The notes below the pieces were generated by a model, which searched no databases, was not told the DNA's origin, and saw only the letters and a list, made by a program, of their open reading frames with translations. The translations under genes and the position numbers were made by a program. From an uncultured Clostridia bacterium (GTDB lineage Bacteria > Bacillota > Clostridia > Christensenellales > UBA1242), in contig CALWPL010000010.1 of assembly GCA_944383405.1 (NCBI GenBank), positions 1-38,893 of the forward strand: a stretch of 38,893 nt of DNA. The letters are read 5' to 3'. Shown piece by piece: positions 3,846 to 31,523 of the stretch. Position 1 is the first letter of the stretch. Each line of letters starts with the position of its first letter.

Positions 3846-4148
3846 ATGGAACGAAGTCAAGGAAAATATCACGAAAAATACAACTCATTTTATAATAGTC
3901 CTGCGTGGAAACAGTTAAGGGCAGAGAAGTGGGTATCGGCTGATGGTTTGTGCGAAATGTGTAGGGAAAAAGGAATTGTTAGAAAAGCAGATGAAATTCA
4001 TCATATTGTGCCGATTGATAAAGATTGGTCTAAACGGTTAGACTTTGATAACTTAATTGCTCTTTGTAAAGACTGCCATAATGCACAACACGAACGAATT
4101 AGTCCACTGAAAAAATTTTTACAAGAATTTGATGGAGATTTAAAATGA
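3846..4148 (+). CDS. HNH endonuclease, packaging-associated
   Basis: A 100-residue HNH nuclease. C36-x2-C39 and C74-x2-C77 form the structural zinc site, HH at 52-53 (EIHHIVP) gives the first catalytic His, N69 lies in DFDNLIALC and H78 completes the motif. Length and architecture match the small HNH proteins next to terminase genes in HK97-like phages, where they work with the large terminase in cos cleavage. The start follows GTGAGGTTTTAAG. The stop overlaps the methyltransferase start (ATGA). It lies beside the GC-rich candidate cos site. Confidence 0.9.
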   Translation: MERSQGKYHEKYNSFYNSPAWKQLRAEKWVSADGLCEMCREKGIVRKADEIHHIVPIDKDWSKRLDFDNLIALCKDCHNAQHERISPLKKFLQEFDGDLK

Positions 4149-4762
4149 AAGATTGGAAAGGAAATAAAAATAGTATTTACAAAACAATTGGTGCAAGCAA
4201 TCATACATACAAAGAAAGAGAAGAGAATGATTATTATGCAACAGACCCTATTGCGATTGATAAACTCTTGACTGTTGAAAAGCCATATAAAAGAGTTTAT
4301 GAATGTGCTTGTGGCGAAGGACATCTTGCTAAAAGATTGCTTGAAGAAGGCTGTATCAAAGAGTTATATGCGAGTGATATTGTTGATCGTGGTTACGGGT
4401 TTGTTCAAGATTTTCTACAAATGAAAGAAGATGAAACAAGTTGGATAAAAGATTGTGATATTTTAACCAACCCACCATATAAATATGCAAAAGAGTTTGT
4501 TTTACACGCACTTGATTTAGTAGGATATGGACATAAAGTCTATATGTTTCTAAAACTCACATTTCTTGAAGGCAAATCAAGATATAAAGACTTATTCAGC
4601 AAGTATCCGCCCAAAATGATTTATGTTTTTAGCGAGAGAGTTTTGTGTGCTAAAAATGGCAAGTTTAAAGAAATGAAAGATGGTGGCGGAAGTGCAGTTG
4701 CTTATGCATGGTTTGTGTGGCAAAAAGGTTGGAAAGATAAAACTATAATTGAATGGATATAA
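4145..4762 (+). CDS. SAM-dependent DNA adenine methyltransferase-like protein
   Basis: This 205-residue protein has a SAM-binding motif I, ECACGEGHLAKRL, at residues 53-65. An acidic loop motif follows (YASDIVDRGYG, about 75-85), and the catalytic NPPY is at 109-112, diagnostic of N6-adenine or exocyclic-amino methylation. No separate target-recognition domain is seen, as in small phage orphan methyltransferases. The start overlaps the HNH stop by four bases. It could protect phage DNA from host restriction or mark sites for packaging; the target sequence cannot be read from the protein. Confidence 0.85.
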   Translation: MKDWKGNKNSIYKTIGASNHTYKEREENDYYATDPIAIDKLLTVEKPYKRVYECACGEGHLAKRLLEEGCIKELYASDIVDRGYGFVQDFLQMKEDETSWIKDCDILTNPPYKYAKEFVLHALDLVGYGHKVYMFLKLTFLEGKSRYKDLFSKYPPKMIYVFSERVLCAKNGKFKEMKDGGGSAVAYAWFVWQKGWKDKTIIEWI

Positions 4763-5927: not shown

Positions 5928-7031
5928 ATGGAAAATCAATGGACTGTTTATATGCATATAGCACCGAATAACAAAAAGTATATTGGTATAACGAGTTTGG
6001 ATGTTGAAAAAAGATGGAGAAAAGGAAATGGTTATTTTAATCATAAACACTTTTTTAATGCTATAAAGAAATATGGTTGGCAAAATATAACTCATAAAAT
6101 TGTTTGTTCTAATTTAAGTGAACAAGAAGCAAAAGAAAAAGAGATAGAACTTATATCACAATATAAAACTTATGACAAAGATTATGGATATAACCATACA
6201 CTTGGTGGAGATGGTAGGAAAGGTGCTTTTGTTAGTAAAGAACAAAGAAATAAATTAAGTGTTTCAAATAGATTAAAAAATGCATATTTGAAAGAAGAAG
6301 AAGTTTTTAATATAAAGGTAGATTTATTAAATGATTTTTCATATAAAGAAATTATAAACAAATATAAAATAAAATATAGTAATTTGCTTACTATTGTTAG
6401 TGGTAAAAACTATGGATATATTTATCCAAATTTTGTGGAATTGTATAATAGCAAAAAGATAAAACAAAACATAGATTTTGAAAATAGTGTTATTGAACTT
6501 GCAAAAAATGGATTAAGTGTCAGTAAGATAAGCAACCAACTTAATTGTGGTAGAAGAAGAATTGATAGTATCTTAAAGAAGAACAATATAAAGTCTTTTG
6601 CAAAAGAAAACAATCAATATTTAAACAGCATAAAGTATTTTATAGTAGAAGATTTTAATAATGGTTATACTTATAATGAACTCGCTGAAAAATACAATGT
6701 ATCTTTAAAATCAATAAAAAATTATACTAATGGTCTTTATACAAAGTTAAAAGGTGATAGAGATAAAGTTTTACAAAAAGAAATGTGTGAATTAAGATTG
6801 CAGGGTTGGTTAATTAAAGATATTGCTAAAAAATATGGTTGTCATAGAGGAAAGGTTTCTAAACTTACAAAAGAATATGCTTTTAATCTAAAGAAAGAAG
6901 ATATTAAATTGTGTTACGAATTAGAAGATATGGGATATACACGAAAGCAAATTGCAAAGAAGATATATAGAGATATTGATTTTGTAAATAATTGGTTGAA
7001 TAAAAGGAAGGAGGGAATAATAATTGATTAG
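5928..7031 (+). CDS. GIY-YIG homing endonuclease, free-standing
   Basis: A 367-residue protein. The N-terminal GIY-YIG nuclease domain spans about residues 5-100: VYMHIAPNNKKYIGITS at 6-22 carries both Tyr elements, followed by a catalytic Arg near 30 (EKRWRKG) and the GYNHTLGGDGRKG tail. The remaining 260 residues are a series of helix-turn-helix or NUMOD-like repeats (LAKNGLSVSKISNQLNCGRRR; AEKYNVSLKSIKNY; IAKKYGCHRGKVSKL), giving a long DNA-recognition arm. It interrupts the small/large terminase pair and its end overlaps the large terminase start by eight bases. It has its own promoter and structured leader. Such genes spread by cutting phage DNA that lacks them. Confidence 0.9.
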   Translation: MENQWTVYMHIAPNNKKYIGITSLDVEKRWRKGNGYFNHKHFFNAIKKYGWQNITHKIVCSNLSEQEAKEKEIELISQYKTYDKDYGYNHTLGGDGRKGAFVSKEQRNKLSVSNRLKNAYLKEEEVFNIKVDLLNDFSYKEIINKYKIKYSNLLTIVSGKNYGYIYPNFVELYNSKKIKQNIDFENSVIELAKNGLSVSKISNQLNCGRRRIDSILKKNNIKSFAKENNQYLNSIKYFIVEDFNNGYTYNELAEKYNVSLKSIKNYTNGLYTKLKGDRDKVLQKEMCELRLQGWLIKDIAKKYGCHRGKVSKLTKEYAFNLKKEDIKLCYELEDMGYTRKQIAKKIYRDIDFVNNWLNKRKEGIIID

Positions 7032-28254: not shown

Positions 28255-28283
28255 TTGACTTACAAATTTATATATGTTATTAT
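28255..28283 (+). promoter_or_regulatory. Promoter of the HNH homing endonuclease gene
   Basis: TTGACT (28255-28260) and TATTAT (28278-28283) with exactly 17 bp between. Transcription would start near 28290, at the A of the ATG at 28291, giving a leaderless message. The box pair resembles that of the other homing endonuclease gene (TTGACT, 17 bp, TATAAT at 5773). Confidence 0.7.
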
Positions 28284-28290
28284 ATATTAT

Positions 28291-29331
28291 ATGATTAAAA
28301 AAATAACATATAAGTTTGTAAAAGATTATATCAAAGAAAAAAGTAATGGGGACTGTTGTTTAATATATGGTGATATAAAAAACAGCAGTTCGGTCATTAC
28401 TATCAAATGTAAATGTGGGAATATATTTGAAAGTTCATATCGTAAAATAAGAGATAGAGAAACTATTAGATGTAATGAATGTGTAAACAAAGAACGCAGA
28501 GATAGATATTCCTTATCTTTTGACGAAGTGTTAAAAATTATAAAATCTTTTGGTTGTGAATATGTAAGTGGGAACTATTTGAATTCGAAATCAAAATTAA
28601 CATTAAAATGCAAATGTGGAAATCTTTTTCAAAAAGATATTTCTCATTTGAGAAGAGGACAATCTTGTTGTCCAAGATGTTCCATAAAAAAACTTTCTCA
28701 ATCTAAATGTAAATATACAAAAGATGTTGCTATTAAACTTTTTAATAAATGGGGAATTATTTTAGAAGATGAAACTCAATATAAAAATGCTTCGTCGCTT
28801 GTAGATTGTATGTGTAAAAATGGACACCATTTTAAAACGAGATTACAATGGCATCTAAATAAAACAAATCCATTTGTTTGTGAAGAATGTGCTATTAAAT
28901 ATCACAGTGGTGAAAATCATTGGAATTATAAAGGCGGAGAGAGTGAAGTTCTTGACTTTTTTAGAAAATCTTTAAAGAATTGGAAGAAAGATGTATTAAA
29001 AAAATACAATTATGAATGCTATTTAACTAATTCAAAAAAAGATTTGGTTGTTCATCATATAAAAAATTTTATGGGAATAGTTTCTGATAGTTGTAAAGAA
29101 CTCAATTTGCCATTATATAGAAAAATAAATGACTATTCTAAACAAGATTTTGAACTATTATCAAAAAAGGTTTTAGAAAAACATAGACTAGATAATGGTA
29201 TCGTATTACAAAGAAAAGTTCATTCTAAATTCCATGTATTATATGGAAAAACTAACAATACATTAGAACAATTTAATGATTTTATAAAAAAATATTATCC
29301 ACATAAAAATTTAATTCCTACCTTAGAGTAG
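28291..29331 (+). CDS. Zinc-ribbon HNH homing endonuclease, probably leaderless
   Basis: The start chosen is ATG at 28291 (MIKKITYKFVK); a TTG at 28255 is in frame but coincides with the -35 box of the promoter. The 346-residue protein has four Cys-pair zinc fingers (ITIKCKCGNIFESSYRKI, CNEC; LTLKCKCGNLFQKDI, CPRC; CMCKNGHHF, CEEC) in the first 210 residues, each like a DNA-recognition ribbon. An HNH nuclease lies near 245-330, with LVVHHIKNF, NGIVLQRKVHSKFHVLYG as core. It sits between two cassette genes as a free-standing mobile gene. No ribosome site precedes the ATG. Confidence 0.8.
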   Translation: MIKKITYKFVKDYIKEKSNGDCCLIYGDIKNSSSVITIKCKCGNIFESSYRKIRDRETIRCNECVNKERRDRYSLSFDEVLKIIKSFGCEYVSGNYLNSKSKLTLKCKCGNLFQKDISHLRRGQSCCPRCSIKKLSQSKCKYTKDVAIKLFNKWGIILEDETQYKNASSLVDCMCKNGHHFKTRLQWHLNKTNPFVCEECAIKYHSGENHWNYKGGESEVLDFFRKSLKNWKKDVLKKYNYECYLTNSKKDLVVHHIKNFMGIVSDSCKELNLPLYRKINDYSKQDFELLSKKVLEKHRLDNGIVLQRKVHSKFHVLYGKTNNTLEQFNDFIKKYYPHKNLIPTLE

Positions 29332-29354: not shown

Positions 29355-29390
29355 AAGGGTATAGCGGATTTTCTCTATGCCCTTAATTAA
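29355..29390 (+). terminator. Hairpin after the homing endonuclease gene
   Basis: AAGGGTATAG (29355-29364) pairs with CTATGCCCTT (29375-29384), 10 bp with one G-U pair, loop of 10, followed by a weak AATTAATTTT tail. GAGAAAA (29334-29340) could pair instead with TTTTCTC (29369-29375), so the two structures compete as in attenuators. Confidence 0.5.
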
Positions 29391-29406
29391 TTTTAGGAGA
29401 AAGATA

Positions 29407-29652
29407 ATGAATTCCAACAATGACAATGATAATATCAGCAATTTACTTGACATAATCAGCATAATGCTTGGTTATGAGAACTTAATAGAAAACAGACAAC
29501 AATCAGCAGAAAACAATGTTAATAAAAGCAATCAAAGGCAAGCAAGACAAATACTTGACGATTTGCATGAACAATTTAGCAAACAAAACGCCATGTTGGA
29601 ATATCAAAATAGTCTACTAGAAGAAATTTTAAAAATTTTAAAAGGAGAATAA
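29407..29652 (+). CDS. Small Asn/Gln-rich coiled-coil protein
   Basis: The start is ATG 29407 (MNSNNDNDN) behind TTTAGGAGAAAGATA; an in-frame ATG at 29377 falls inside the preceding hairpin. The 81-residue product is Asn/Asp-rich at the N-terminus, then helical with a C-terminal coiled coil (MLEYQNSLLEEILKILKGE). Function is unknown. It is part of the same low-complexity cassette, separated from the Gly-rich gene by the homing endonuclease insertion. Confidence 0.65.
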   Translation: MNSNNDNDNISNLLDIISIMLGYENLIENRQQSAENNVNKSNQRQARQILDDLHEQFSKQNAMLEYQNSLLEEILKILKGE

Positions 29653-29654
29653 AA

Positions 29655-30164
29655 ATGACTTATTTTAATGGACAATGCGACAGATTGTGTCCAAATACGG
29701 TTATTAGTCAATCATTGACTGTTGTAACTGTTAATGGCACAGATACATTACTTATTGATATACCTTCTGGCACTTATGCTAATGGTTGTTGCTACTCACT
29801 TATAATCGCACAAAACAGACCAAGCACTGCAACTGTTGATATGCCTGTTGCTATTTCTATTGGCGGAAATACAACTACTGTTTATCCGCTTGTATGCAAT
29901 AGGACTTGTTTACAAGCAAATGCTTGTCAAATTAGTGGAAGAACAAGGATTAAGGCAATAGTTCAGACAAACACTACTGGTGGTGTGTTCAGGGCTTGTT
30001 CTGGGCTTGGTTCTTGTTGCTATCAAAGGCTTGTAAGTTTGCCAGTAACTACAACAACTACAGCAACGCCAGCGACTGTTAGTGCAACAACTTTAAATTT
30101 TAAAGATGATAAAGTAAGCACAACATCAACAAAATCTACAAAGGGGGTAAATGCTAATGCCTAA
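29655..30164 (+). CDS. Cys/Thr-rich beta protein, probably virion-associated
   Basis: A 169-residue beta-rich protein with ribosome site AAAAGGAGAATAAAA. It has regularly placed Cys (GQCDRLCPN near 6-14, NGCCYSL near 45, CNRTCLQANAC near 86-96, GSCCYQR near 118) and strands of a jelly-roll-like small fold. A Thr/Ala-rich tail starts at about 128. I remember homologues as part of the same conserved cassette in gut phages. It might decorate the virion, but this is inferred only from composition and position. Confidence 0.65.
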   Translation: MTYFNGQCDRLCPNTVISQSLTVVTVNGTDTLLIDIPSGTYANGCCYSLIIAQNRPSTATVDMPVAISIGGNTTTVYPLVCNRTCLQANACQISGRTRIKAIVQTNTTGGVFRACSGLGSCCYQRLVSLPVTTTTTATPATVSATTLNFKDDKVSTTSTKSTKGVNANA

Positions 30165-30831
30165 TATGATGGATTATATGTATATGAGAGATATGGCTAG
30201 AAGAAAGAGTGATATGCCAAGAATGGGTGGAATGCGTGATGGTCGTAACCCTTATGGCTCTCGTGGTGGTTATATAACTAGCCGTGACCCAAGAAGAAGA
30301 GATAGGGCAATGGAAGACTATAACTATGAAAGAGAAGAACCAAGACGTGGAATGGAAGACTATGGCTATCATGGAGAACCTAGTAGACAATATTATGGTG
30401 CTTATGGTGATGTGCCTTTCTATGTAATGGAACAAAGAGATTACAGACGTGGCATGGACTATAACTATGGTCGTGATTATGGCTATGGGTATCCTGATTA
30501 TGCAGGTGGTGAGGTTATGTCTAGGCAAGAATTAGAAACCTTGCACCATAAATTACTACAAGAAGTAGAACAAGGTGATAGGGACAACTTCTCTAAGGAA
30601 AAAATATTAAAAAGAGCAGGAGAACTAGGAATTAAGTTTGATGAGTTTTCACCTGAAGCCTTAGCAGTTGCAACATTAATGGTATATACTGATTATTGTA
30701 AAACTTTGGGCAAAGGCAATCTTGACACCTATATAAGACTTGCAAAAGATTTCATGTCGGATACAGATAGCGAATTAAAAGGTGAGGAAAAATTAACTGC
30801 TTATTTTGATTACGTTGTAATGCCTAAATAG
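30157..30831 (+). CDS. Arg/Tyr/Gly-rich protein with helical C-terminal domain
   Basis: The start chosen is the ATG at 30157 (MPNMMDYMYMRD) with AAAGGGGGTAA upstream; ATG 30151 is in frame and possible. The 224-residue product has residues 1-120 dominated by Met/Arg/Tyr/Gly/Asp with repeats such as RGMEDYGY and NYGRDYGYGY, probably disordered. A helical domain follows, with the pattern ELETLHHKLLQEVEQGD, GIKFDEFSPEALAVATLMVY and TDYCKTLGKGNLDTYIRLAK, which I recognise from many gut-phage proteins of unknown function. It precedes the recoded gene by 12 bp. Confidence 0.7.
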   Translation: MPNMMDYMYMRDMARRKSDMPRMGGMRDGRNPYGSRGGYITSRDPRRRDRAMEDYNYEREEPRRGMEDYGYHGEPSRQYYGAYGDVPFYVMEQRDYRRGMDYNYGRDYGYGYPDYAGGEVMSRQELETLHHKLLQEVEQGDRDNFSKEKILKRAGELGIKFDEFSPEALAVATLMVYTDYCKTLGKGNLDTYIRLAKDFMSDTDSELKGEEKLTAYFDYVVMPK

Positions 30832-30842
30832 GAGGTGATGTC

Positions 30843-31225
30843 ATGGCTCGGTTTAAATATTACAATTCAAACCCGAGCGGATAGCCCGAAAGGGTGGAAT
30901 AAAAACTACTGATTGCGTAACTAGGGCTATATCACTCGCTACAAATACGCCATATCAAACTGTTAGAGAACTACTAACCCTCTCAGCGAAAGAACTAAAT
31001 TGTTGTAGGTTATGTATTGCTTGCTATAAACATTTACTTGAAATGTATTTTGGTCTGCACACAATAGAAGATGGCTATCATACAGTTGGAGAGATTGCAG
31101 ATATGTATCCGAATAGAACGCTATTACTTCGTGCAGATGGGCATCTTAGTTGTAGTATAAACAATATTATATATGACATTTTTGATTGTAGAGATATGGT
31201 TGTCACACATTATTGGGTTATATAG
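30843..31225 (+). CDS. Recoded gene: candidate 17-nt translational bypass
   Basis: ATG 30843 follows a perfect TAGGAGGTGATGTC. Frame 1 reads MARFKYYNSNPSG (30843-30881) and then TAG. A second frame, open from 30857 but without an ATG until 31043, reads from 30899 IKTTDCVTRAISLAT and continues to GYHTVGEIADMYPNRTLLL, DGHLSC and THYWVI, stop at 31223-31225. Joining GGA 30879-30881 to GGA 30896-30898 gives 13+108 residues, NPSG-IKTTDCV. This matches the spacing I remember for a common Firmicutes phage family opening KYYNPNPxGxxTGDCVIRAIS and ending in an xYW motif. The split is therefore either a recoded gene or a 17-nt insertion mutation. Function of the family is unknown. Confidence 0.7.
30879..30898 (+). 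promoter_or_regulatory. Bypass element: GGA, TAG, GAAA hairpin, GGA
   Basis: Take-off codon GGA (30879-30881) is followed by TAG (30882-30884). CCC (30885-30887) pairs with GGG (30892-30894) around GNRA loop GAAA, with a G-U pair 30884/30895. The landing codon GGA (30896-30898) follows at once. Matched GGA codons, stop next to take-off and a hairpin in the gap are the hallmarks of T4 gene 60 bypassing, here with a 17-nt shift. Confidence 0.6.
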
Positions 31226-31341: not shown

Positions 31342-31370
31342 TTGACATTTGTGTTCAGTTATGTTATTAT
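31342..31370 (+). promoter_or_regulatory. Strong promoter of a short transcript
   Basis: TTGACA (31342-31347), 17-bp spacer, TATTAT (31365-31370). Transcription from about 31377 to the terminator at 31520 gives a transcript of roughly 145 nt. The DNA between 31226 and 31341 holds no gene that I can support. Confidence 0.8.
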
Positions 31371-31394
31371 AACAATGTGTAGGAGGTTAAAATT

Positions 31395-31430
31395 ATGATT
31401 TACACACCACACAATTATTTAAAAAACTAA
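31395..31430 (+). CDS. 11-codon leader-like ORF MIYTPHNYLKN
   Basis: ATG 31395 is eight bases behind a perfect AGGAGG (31381-31386) and a consensus promoter. It ends in tandem TAA TAA after 11 residues. The last codons form A-AAA-AAC-TAA, the same slippery context as the gpG frameshift site at 14657. A CCACT-ATG-AGTGG hairpin starts nine bases later. A -1 shift would open a frame to 31639, but that lies antisense to a real gene and across a terminator, so the short peptide or the RNA itself is the likelier product. Confidence 0.45.
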   Translation: MIYTPHNYLKN

Positions 31431-31495
31431 TAAAGACCACTATGAGTGGGGCGAGTTTTTTGGGTGGCATACCCCACCATTTCTTACGAAAAAAT

Positions 31496-31523
31496 AAGAG
31501 AGTGCTAATTACACTCTCTTTTT
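31496..31523. terminator. Bidirectional terminator between late and early regions
   Basis: AAGAGAGTG (31496-31504) pairs perfectly with CACTCTCTT (31512-31520), loop CTAATTA. It is followed by T on the + strand (TTTTT) and, on the - strand, by ATTTTTT. It lies where rightward late genes and the leftward operon converge. Confidence 0.92.

What the first reader, a model, noticed from the sequence alone, without database searches (positions are those of the whole stretch)
30843..31225. Candidate programmed translational bypass with a 17-nt hop
The gene reads MARFKYYNSNPSG to a GGA codon directly followed by TAG. The gap contains a CCC-GAAA-GGG hairpin and ends in a second GGA, from which IKTTDCVTRAIS... 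continues for 108 residues in another frame. Matched GGA take-off and landing codons, a UAG next to the take-off site and a stable hairpin in the gap are the diagnostic features of T4 gene 60. The joined product has, by my recollection, the exact spacing (NPxGxxTGDCV) of an abundant unsplit phage family, so neither half should function alone. Bypassing is documented in very few genes. The rest of the gene is intact, without secondary stops, which argues against old decay.
Basis: partly seen in the sequence, partly recalled or inferred. Interest (0 to 1): 0.93.

Follow-up and report, generated by a model that had tools for sequence, protein, structure and literature searches.

The report
Candidate 17-base ribosome hop in phage
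A phage gene is split by a 17-base insert that carries several landmarks of phage T4's ribosome hop, so ribosomes are predicted to skip it and likely make one protein from two reading frames, although a simply broken gene is almost as likely.

Summary
In detail: MARFKYYNSNPSG ends in GGA-TAG (30879-30884), a 17-nt gap holds a GCCC-GAAA-GGGU hairpin, and a second GGA (30896-30898) leads into a 108-codon frame. Of 133 fetched homologues 130 share one spacing that a 17-nt insertion interrupts; 33 distinct relatives read as DNA are unsplit.

For T4-like bypassing: a second stem-loop (30846-30878, z -4.5), built from very rare codons, abuts the take-off codon; T4 also uses a 5' stem-loop. The first eight bases, GGAUAGCC, equal T4's. 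An HNH endonuclease gene lies 1.55 kb upstream and is absent there in 9 of 9 syntenic relatives, recalling mobA by T4 gene 60.

Against: only 13 residues precede the gap, so T4's nascent-peptide signal cannot be placed as in T4; no relative shares the gap; P0004, beside it at the base of its clade, looks disrupted in the same linker in another frame; the gap hairpin alone is modest; no product is shown.

I put bypassing at 0.42, a broken gene at 0.38, -1 frameshifting at 0.07. If true, it is a minimal variant of T4 gene 60 bypassing.

The parts
30830..30838 (+). Shine-Dalgarno-like AGGAGGTGA before the ATG
   Evidence: sequence
30843..30884 (+). first frame, MARFKYYNSNPSG then TAG
   Evidence: the frame is closed upstream
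30846..30878 (+). 5' stem-loop (GCTCGGTTT/AACCCGAGC) ending directly before the take-off codon
   Evidence: inverted repeat; -9.0 kcal/mol, 1 of 5000 synonymous versions fold as well; z -4.52
30869..30875 (+). A_AAC_CCG heptamer (rival -1 frameshift site)
   Evidence: an A_AAC_CCN heptamer is also in 5 of the 18 unsplit relatives printed (L003, L006, L016, L022, L044; read by eye)
30879..30881 (+). candidate take-off codon GGA
30882..30898 (+). 17-nt insertion (coding gap) beginning with the UAG stop
30884..30895 (+). gap hairpin GCCC-GAAA-GGGU
30896..30898 (+). candidate landing codon GGA
30899..31225 (+). second frame, 108 codons, matches phage family phrog_3754
28255..29331 (+). HNH endonuclease gene (PHROG profile), absent from this place in nine relatives
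   Evidence: Pfam gives no HNH match
29377..29652 (+). 91-aa ORF beside the endonuclease; no tblastn match in ten relatives
30151..30831 (+). conserved upstream neighbour (226 aa), matched in nine relatives

Best explanation
A 17-nt insertion splits this phage gene after codon 13, and ribosomes are predicted to leave the mRNA at the first GGA, slide over the insert and resume after the second GGA, likely yielding one 121-residue protein with the family's normal spacing. Shown by sequence: matched GGA codons, a UAG next to the take-off codon, a GAAA-loop hairpin that begins in that stop codon, and a second hairpin that ends directly before the take-off codon. Inferred: the gap hairpin would form at the A site and hinder termination, as described for T4; the 3' arm of the upstream hairpin lies inside the ribosome at take-off and would be free to pair only once the ribosome has moved about 17 nt, so it would act as a pawl that makes the slide one-way. 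Inferred: the insert may persist because it spoils a target of the HNH endonuclease encoded 1.55 kb upstream, as was proposed for T4. Untested: that any joined protein is made, and how a hop would start without T4's long-range peptide signal.
For: Codon before the stop equal to the codon 17 nt on: 179 of 20000 random insertions. 5' stem-loop: 1 of 5000 synonymous recodings and 1 of 200 dinucleotide shuffles fold as well; its arms use CGG (1% of Arg) and CCG (2% of Pro), and 0 of 5529 13-codon windows in 15 other genes of the phage hold two of CGG/CCG/CCC. The matching 33 bases fold at 0 to -7.1 kcal/mol in the 18 relatives printed, -9.0 here. T4 AF158101 reads GGATAGCC-TTCG-GGCTAT at take-off, the window GGATAGCC-CGAAAGGG. 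Spacing after the hop equals that of 130 of 133 homologues, which any 17-nt insertion here would also give. HNH endonuclease gene absent from this place in 9 of 9 syntenic relatives. The junction lies in a loop between strand 3-6 and the helix that starts at Cys19.
Against: Only 13 codons before the gap and a closed frame upstream; T4 has KKYK 25-30 residues from the P site and falls from 49% to below 10% when it is changed. None of 33 distinct relatives read as DNA has the gap. P0004, at the base of the same clade, seems disrupted in the same linker by another length. A matched codon pair somewhere before the stop is common, 6658 of 20000. Gap hairpin: 9 of 200 dinucleotide shuffles as good; 56-nt stretch 8 of 200; 78-nt stretch 35 of 200. 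Hairpins as strong form 41 (33-nt) and 13 (17-nt) clusters on the plus strand, this site included. No GAG six bases before landing. The tests were chosen after seeing the site. No expression data.
Confidence: 0.42

Rival explanations
1. A recent 17-nt insertion has broken a dispensable phage gene, perhaps kept because it blocks an endonuclease site; only the 13-residue peptide is made, and the T4-like features are coincidence or by-products of hairpin-forming mutation.
For: Singleton: 33 of 33 distinct relatives unsplit. Possible relics of the family: a C-terminal fragment with a stop at a contig edge of the same assembly and a weak match with three stops in G1224. P0004 looks disrupted in the same linker. 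In a survey of 1106 genomes 146 clusters were put down to recoding and 4010 to pseudogenes, and singleton frame changes to errors, recent indels or false positives (PMC3711429, passages).
Against: Needs the matched GGA at the stop, the gap hairpin and the rare-codon 5' hairpin together by chance. The 108-codon remainder is open and keeps the family's invariant Cys, His and Asp.
Confidence: 0.38
2. Programmed -1 frameshifting at A_AAC_CCG (30869-30875), stimulated by the hairpin that starts 8 nt downstream, reads NP-ERIARKGGIKTT-DC and joins the frames without a hop.
For: Complete X_XXY_YYZ heptamer, 8-nt spacer to the hairpin, and a -1 frame open through the overlap. The linker is a loop, so six extra residues may be borne. 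A_AA.C_CC.G is not among the three heptamers that stayed under threshold with the strongest stimulator in E. coli.
Against: The product would have 12 residues between NP and DC; 130 of 133 homologues have 6 and one has 7. The heptamer largely follows from the conserved NP motif and is of the same type in 5 of 18 unsplit relatives. In E. coli A_AA.C_CC.A stayed under threshold and the C_CCG tetramer was only 1.8- to 3.6-fold above background (PMC4066793, passages).
Confidence: 0.07
3. The 17 bases are an assembly or sample artefact, or a minority variant.
For: One contig of one assembly; the stretch has no second copy in it and no close relative in the collections searched.
Against: An unrepeated 17-mer (one place with two mismatches elsewhere) is not what misassembly usually makes (established knowledge).
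Confidence: 0.07
4. Termination at UAG and re-initiation at AUA 30899, with AAAGGG as a weak ribosome-binding site, makes an N-truncated protein.
For: AAAGGG (30889-30894) lies 4 nt before ATA 30899.
Against: AUA is a poor start codon (recalled); the GGG lies in the hairpin; an N-terminus of the family type is present in 131 of 133 homologues.
Confidence: 0.04

Closest known systems
Phage T4 gene 60 programmed translational bypass (AF158101)
   Same: GGA take-off, UAG directly after, same first eight bases GGAUAGCC, tetraloop hairpin at the stop codon, matched GGA landing, an upstream stem-loop, unsplit relatives, HNH endonuclease gene upstream
   Different: gap 17 nt instead of 50; 13 instead of 46 codons before take-off, so no signal 25-30 residues behind the P site; shorter, weaker hairpin with GAAA instead of UUCG; the 5' stem-loop abuts the take-off codon; no GAG six bases before landing; not shown to be expressed
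mobA-60.1-gene 60 arrangement of T4 (PMC2988022 and PMC5009743, passages)
   Same: HNH endonuclease gene plus a small ORF upstream of a gene that carries a short insert, absent from relatives
   Different: here the endonuclease lies between other genes 1.55 kb away and does not split the gene itself; its target is unknown
byp elements of Magnusiomyces capitatus mitochondria (PMC5009743, passages)
   Same: short inserts that would otherwise inactivate genes
   Different: 81 cases in one organelle with relaxed decoding; here one phage gene
Unproven bypass candidates: Streptomyces phage Hau3 terminase, Prevotella loescheii adhesin 29-nt hop (PMC5009743, passages)
   Same: proposed natural hops in a phage or bacterial gene
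   Different: Hau3 involves a UUA codon, Prevotella a longer gap that was not followed up; neither was compared by sequence here
Synthetic 'stop-hops' in E. coli (PMC5009743, passages)
   Same: matched codons flank a stop codon
   Different: 9-nt constructs, no natural gene
phrog_3754 phage proteins of unknown function
   Same: second frame matches the profile, E 1.7e-9
   Different: the relatives read here are single-frame

Membership tests
[quoted passage not shown]
T4 gene 60-type programmed bypass | stop codon directly 3' of take-off | tested here: met
   UAG 30882-30884
T4 gene 60-type programmed bypass | take-off / A-site stem-loop | tested here: inconclusive
   hairpin 30884-30895, -5.8 kcal/mol, 9 of 200 dinucleotide shuffles as good; T4's 31-nt stretch -14.7, 0 of 200
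T4 gene 60-type programmed bypass | 5' stem-loop upstream of take-off | tested here: met
   30846-30878; it abuts the take-off codon, unlike T4's description
T4 gene 60-type programmed bypass | nascent-peptide signal (KKYK 25-30 residues from the P site) | tested here: not met
   13 residues only, frame closed upstream; requirement read
T4 gene 60-type programmed bypass | Shine-Dalgarno-like GAG six bases 5' of landing | tested here: not met
   the bases there are GAAAGGGT before GGA; modest influence in T4
T4 gene 60-type programmed bypass | joined product made | not testable with these tools
   no expression data held
programmed -1 frameshifting | efficient slippery heptamer | tested here: inconclusive
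   A_AAC_CCG present, a weak class in E. coli
programmed -1 frameshifting | product spacing as in homologues | tested here: not met
   12 against 6 residues
homing-endonuclease-linked insert | endonuclease gene near the insert, absent from relatives | tested here: met
homing-endonuclease-linked insert | endonuclease cleaves the uninserted gene | not testable with these tools
   needs a cleavage assay
homing-endonuclease-linked insert | endonuclease and insert co-occur in other phages | tested here: inconclusive
   the one viral contig with a relative of the endonuclease (L063) shows none of the neighbour genes or four family proteins tried
phrog_3754 protein family | profile match and invariant Cys, His, Asp | tested here: met

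The most novel reading that the evidence does not exclude
A new natural phage case of programmed bypassing beside T4 gene 60: a minimal 17-nt hop that works without T4's long-range nascent-peptide signal, driven by two flanking hairpins of which the upstream one acts as a ratchet, and kept as the immunity insert of a freestanding HNH homing endonuclease, i.e. an independent re-invention of the T4 mobA/gene 60 cassette in a temperate siphophage.
Probability: 0.33. Interest if true: 0.92.

Novelty: new variant of a known kind. Interest (0 to 1): 0.66.

Why it matters
Used bypassing is well documented in T4 gene 60 and in one yeast mitochondrion; the Prevotella and phage Hau3 cases are unproven, two further reports proved spurious, and shorter natural hops have long been presumed but are scarce (PMC5009743, passages). 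This site is short and self-contained, and differs from T4 exactly in lacking the long-range peptide signal. A reporter test would show whether two hairpins and matched codons suffice, and whether homing endonucleases repeatedly give rise to bypassed inserts. If it fails, the site is a warning about how T4-like a broken gene can look.

Tried and rejected
Gap as a mobile or repeated element: the exact 17-mer occurs in 3 viral contigs; read by eye, none lies in a copy of this gene, and three is about what chance gives in tens of billions of bases (size estimated by me). One place with two mismatches elsewhere in the assembly; only itself in the window at up to three mismatches. Copied from nearby: the longest exact word that 30868-30901 shares with the rest of the window is nine bases. 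Known RNA family: best match E 4.3, elsewhere. tRNA: none. A start further upstream that would lengthen the peptide: the frame is closed. Reassigned stop: read as sense, TAG leads to TAA six codons on, and 4 of the 15 genes sampled end in TAG. Other copies with the gap: searches gave none. Split copies seen as short proteins: no candidate for the 60-aa internal ORF. Fold search for function: no PDB match at E 0.001, 22 viral ones, mostly uncharacterised. A minus-strand terminator-like hairpin over the gap was not pursued.

Full report
What is there. The window is one whole contig (C10, 38,893 bases) of a 1.33-Mb, 20-contig assembly. It reads as a temperate tailed phage: terminase, portal, head protease, tape measure and integrase profiles match. 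The five relatives from named genome contigs are metagenome-assembled, four titled Clostridia, from gut samples of animals, so a gut Clostridia host is an inference. At 30843 an ATG behind AGGAGGTGA opens MARFKYYNSNPSG, ending in GGA-TAG; the 17-nt gap ends in GGA, and 108 codons follow.

The gap is a 17-nt insertion. The second frame has 38 homologues; a 23-row profile has 1831, of which the best 120 are listed, a list that favours complete proteins. Of 133 fetched proteins 130 have the same spacing to DC (105 by script, 25 by eye), one has a seven-residue linker, and two, P0004 and P0016, have aberrant N-termini. At DNA level one search prints 36 rows, three of them duplicates, so 33 distinct relatives: 30 pass its pattern test, three (L013, L014, L029) were judged by eye, and in all 33 the N-terminus is in frame. 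Ten of the 33 (L008-L015, L037, L038) are distant and have another N-terminal motif. The script keeps only copies with an open body, so broken copies and a few others (for example L028, L030, L057, L062) were dropped. Two possible relics are known: a C-terminal fragment with a stop at a contig edge of the same assembly and a weak match with three stops in G1224. That the hop would give the family spacing follows from any insertion of this length here and does not in itself favour a hop over decay.

Structure. AlphaFold2 on a full-length relative (P0005, 53 rows) gives mean pLDDT 93.5: strand 3-6, a loop of lower confidence (77 for residues 11-20), and a helix that starts at Cys19; Cys19, His95 and Asp106 are invariant in the 53 rows. 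A cysteine-protease-like function is an inference from these residues and from weak matches, none at E 0.001. The junction lies in the loop.

Signals. Improbable under random insertion: the codon at the stop equal to the codon 17 nt on (179 of 20000); the 5' stem-loop that ends at the take-off codon (1 of 5000 synonymous recodings; z -4.52, 1 of 200; arms made of CGG and CCG, 1% and 2% of their amino acid's codons); and the gap hairpin (3 of 20000 at phage composition, 74 of 20000 at its own, but 9 of 200 by dinucleotide shuffle). No 13-codon window of 15 other genes has two of CGG/CCG/CCC (0 of 5529; the codon set was chosen after seeing the site). Controls against: some matched codon pair before the stop arises in 6658 of 20000 random insertions; the 56-nt stretch is equalled by 33 of 2000 mononucleotide and 8 of 200 dinucleotide shuffles, the 78-nt stretch by 35 of 200; equally strong 33-nt hairpins form 41 clusters and 17-nt ones 13 on the plus strand, this site included.

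Comparison with T4. The T4 record reads GATGGATAGCCTTCGGGCTATC at take-off and TTATTGGATTA at landing; the window shares GGATAGCC. The review describes matched GGA codons, the adjacent UAG, a take-off stem-loop, a 5' stem-loop that works as a motor, and dependence on a nascent peptide whose KKYK lies 25 to 30 residues from the P site (PMC5009743, passages). The kinetic paper describes a stem-loop in the A site acting as tRNA mimic, and a fall from 49% to under 10% when KKYK is changed (PMC11194080, abstract and passages). Geometry (inference, using a general ribosome footprint from established knowledge): with GGA 30879 in the P site the 3' arm of the 5' stem-loop lies in the ribosome; with GGA 30896 in the P site it has just come out, so it could close behind and block return.

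Homing link. Nine relatives (L003, L005, L006, L007, L016-L020) match the 249-aa and the 226-aa gene upstream of this gene; two (L006, L017) also match the 169-aa gene. The endonuclease (28255-29331) and the 91-aa ORF match none of the ten loci given; the tenth, L042, matched only the gene itself. The endonuclease fits PHROG profiles named HNH endonuclease and resembles phage endonucleases such as SPBc2 YomD (31% identity); Pfam gives no HNH match for it. The only related viral contig found (L063) shows none of these neighbours. Free-standing endonucleases cut hundreds to thousands of bases from their own gene (PMC2988022, passages), and T4's 50-nt insert was proposed to have protected against the nuclease (PMC5009743, passages). 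That the window's insert does the same is a hypothesis.

P0004. It lies with the window at the base of a seven-member clade, weakly separated (94/60). Two disruptions in one short linker may mean a hot spot of decay, a shared endonuclease target, or recoding in both.

Verdict. Bypassing 0.42, broken gene 0.38, -1 frameshift 0.07, artefact 0.07, re-initiation 0.04. The listings of searches showed no report of this site or of bypassing in metagenomic phages; the library lacks most subscription papers.

Noticed in passing
P0004 and P0016: Two homologues with aberrant N-termini; P0004 looks frame-disrupted in the same NP-DC linker, P0016 begins seven residues before DC.
   Followed up: partly
G000 contig C16, 45-164 (L031): A C-terminal fragment of the same protein family with a stop upstream, at a contig edge of the same assembly.
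   Followed up: partly
window 3846-4148, 5928-7031, 28255-29331: Three genes with HNH or homing endonuclease profiles in one phage; the first overlaps a methyltransferase ORF (4145-4762) that matches only profile positions 186-379 of 458.
   Followed up: no
window 31342-31478: TTGACA-17-TATTAT promoter-like site, then AGGAGG and an 11-codon ORF (ATG 31395), then hairpins and a T run: looks like a leader peptide with an attenuator.
   Followed up: no
window 31496-31520: Terminator-like hairpin scored on both strands between the convergent gene blocks.
   Followed up: no
window 30872-30890, minus strand: Terminator-like hairpin across the take-off site and gap on the minus strand; antisense use not tested.
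   Followed up: no
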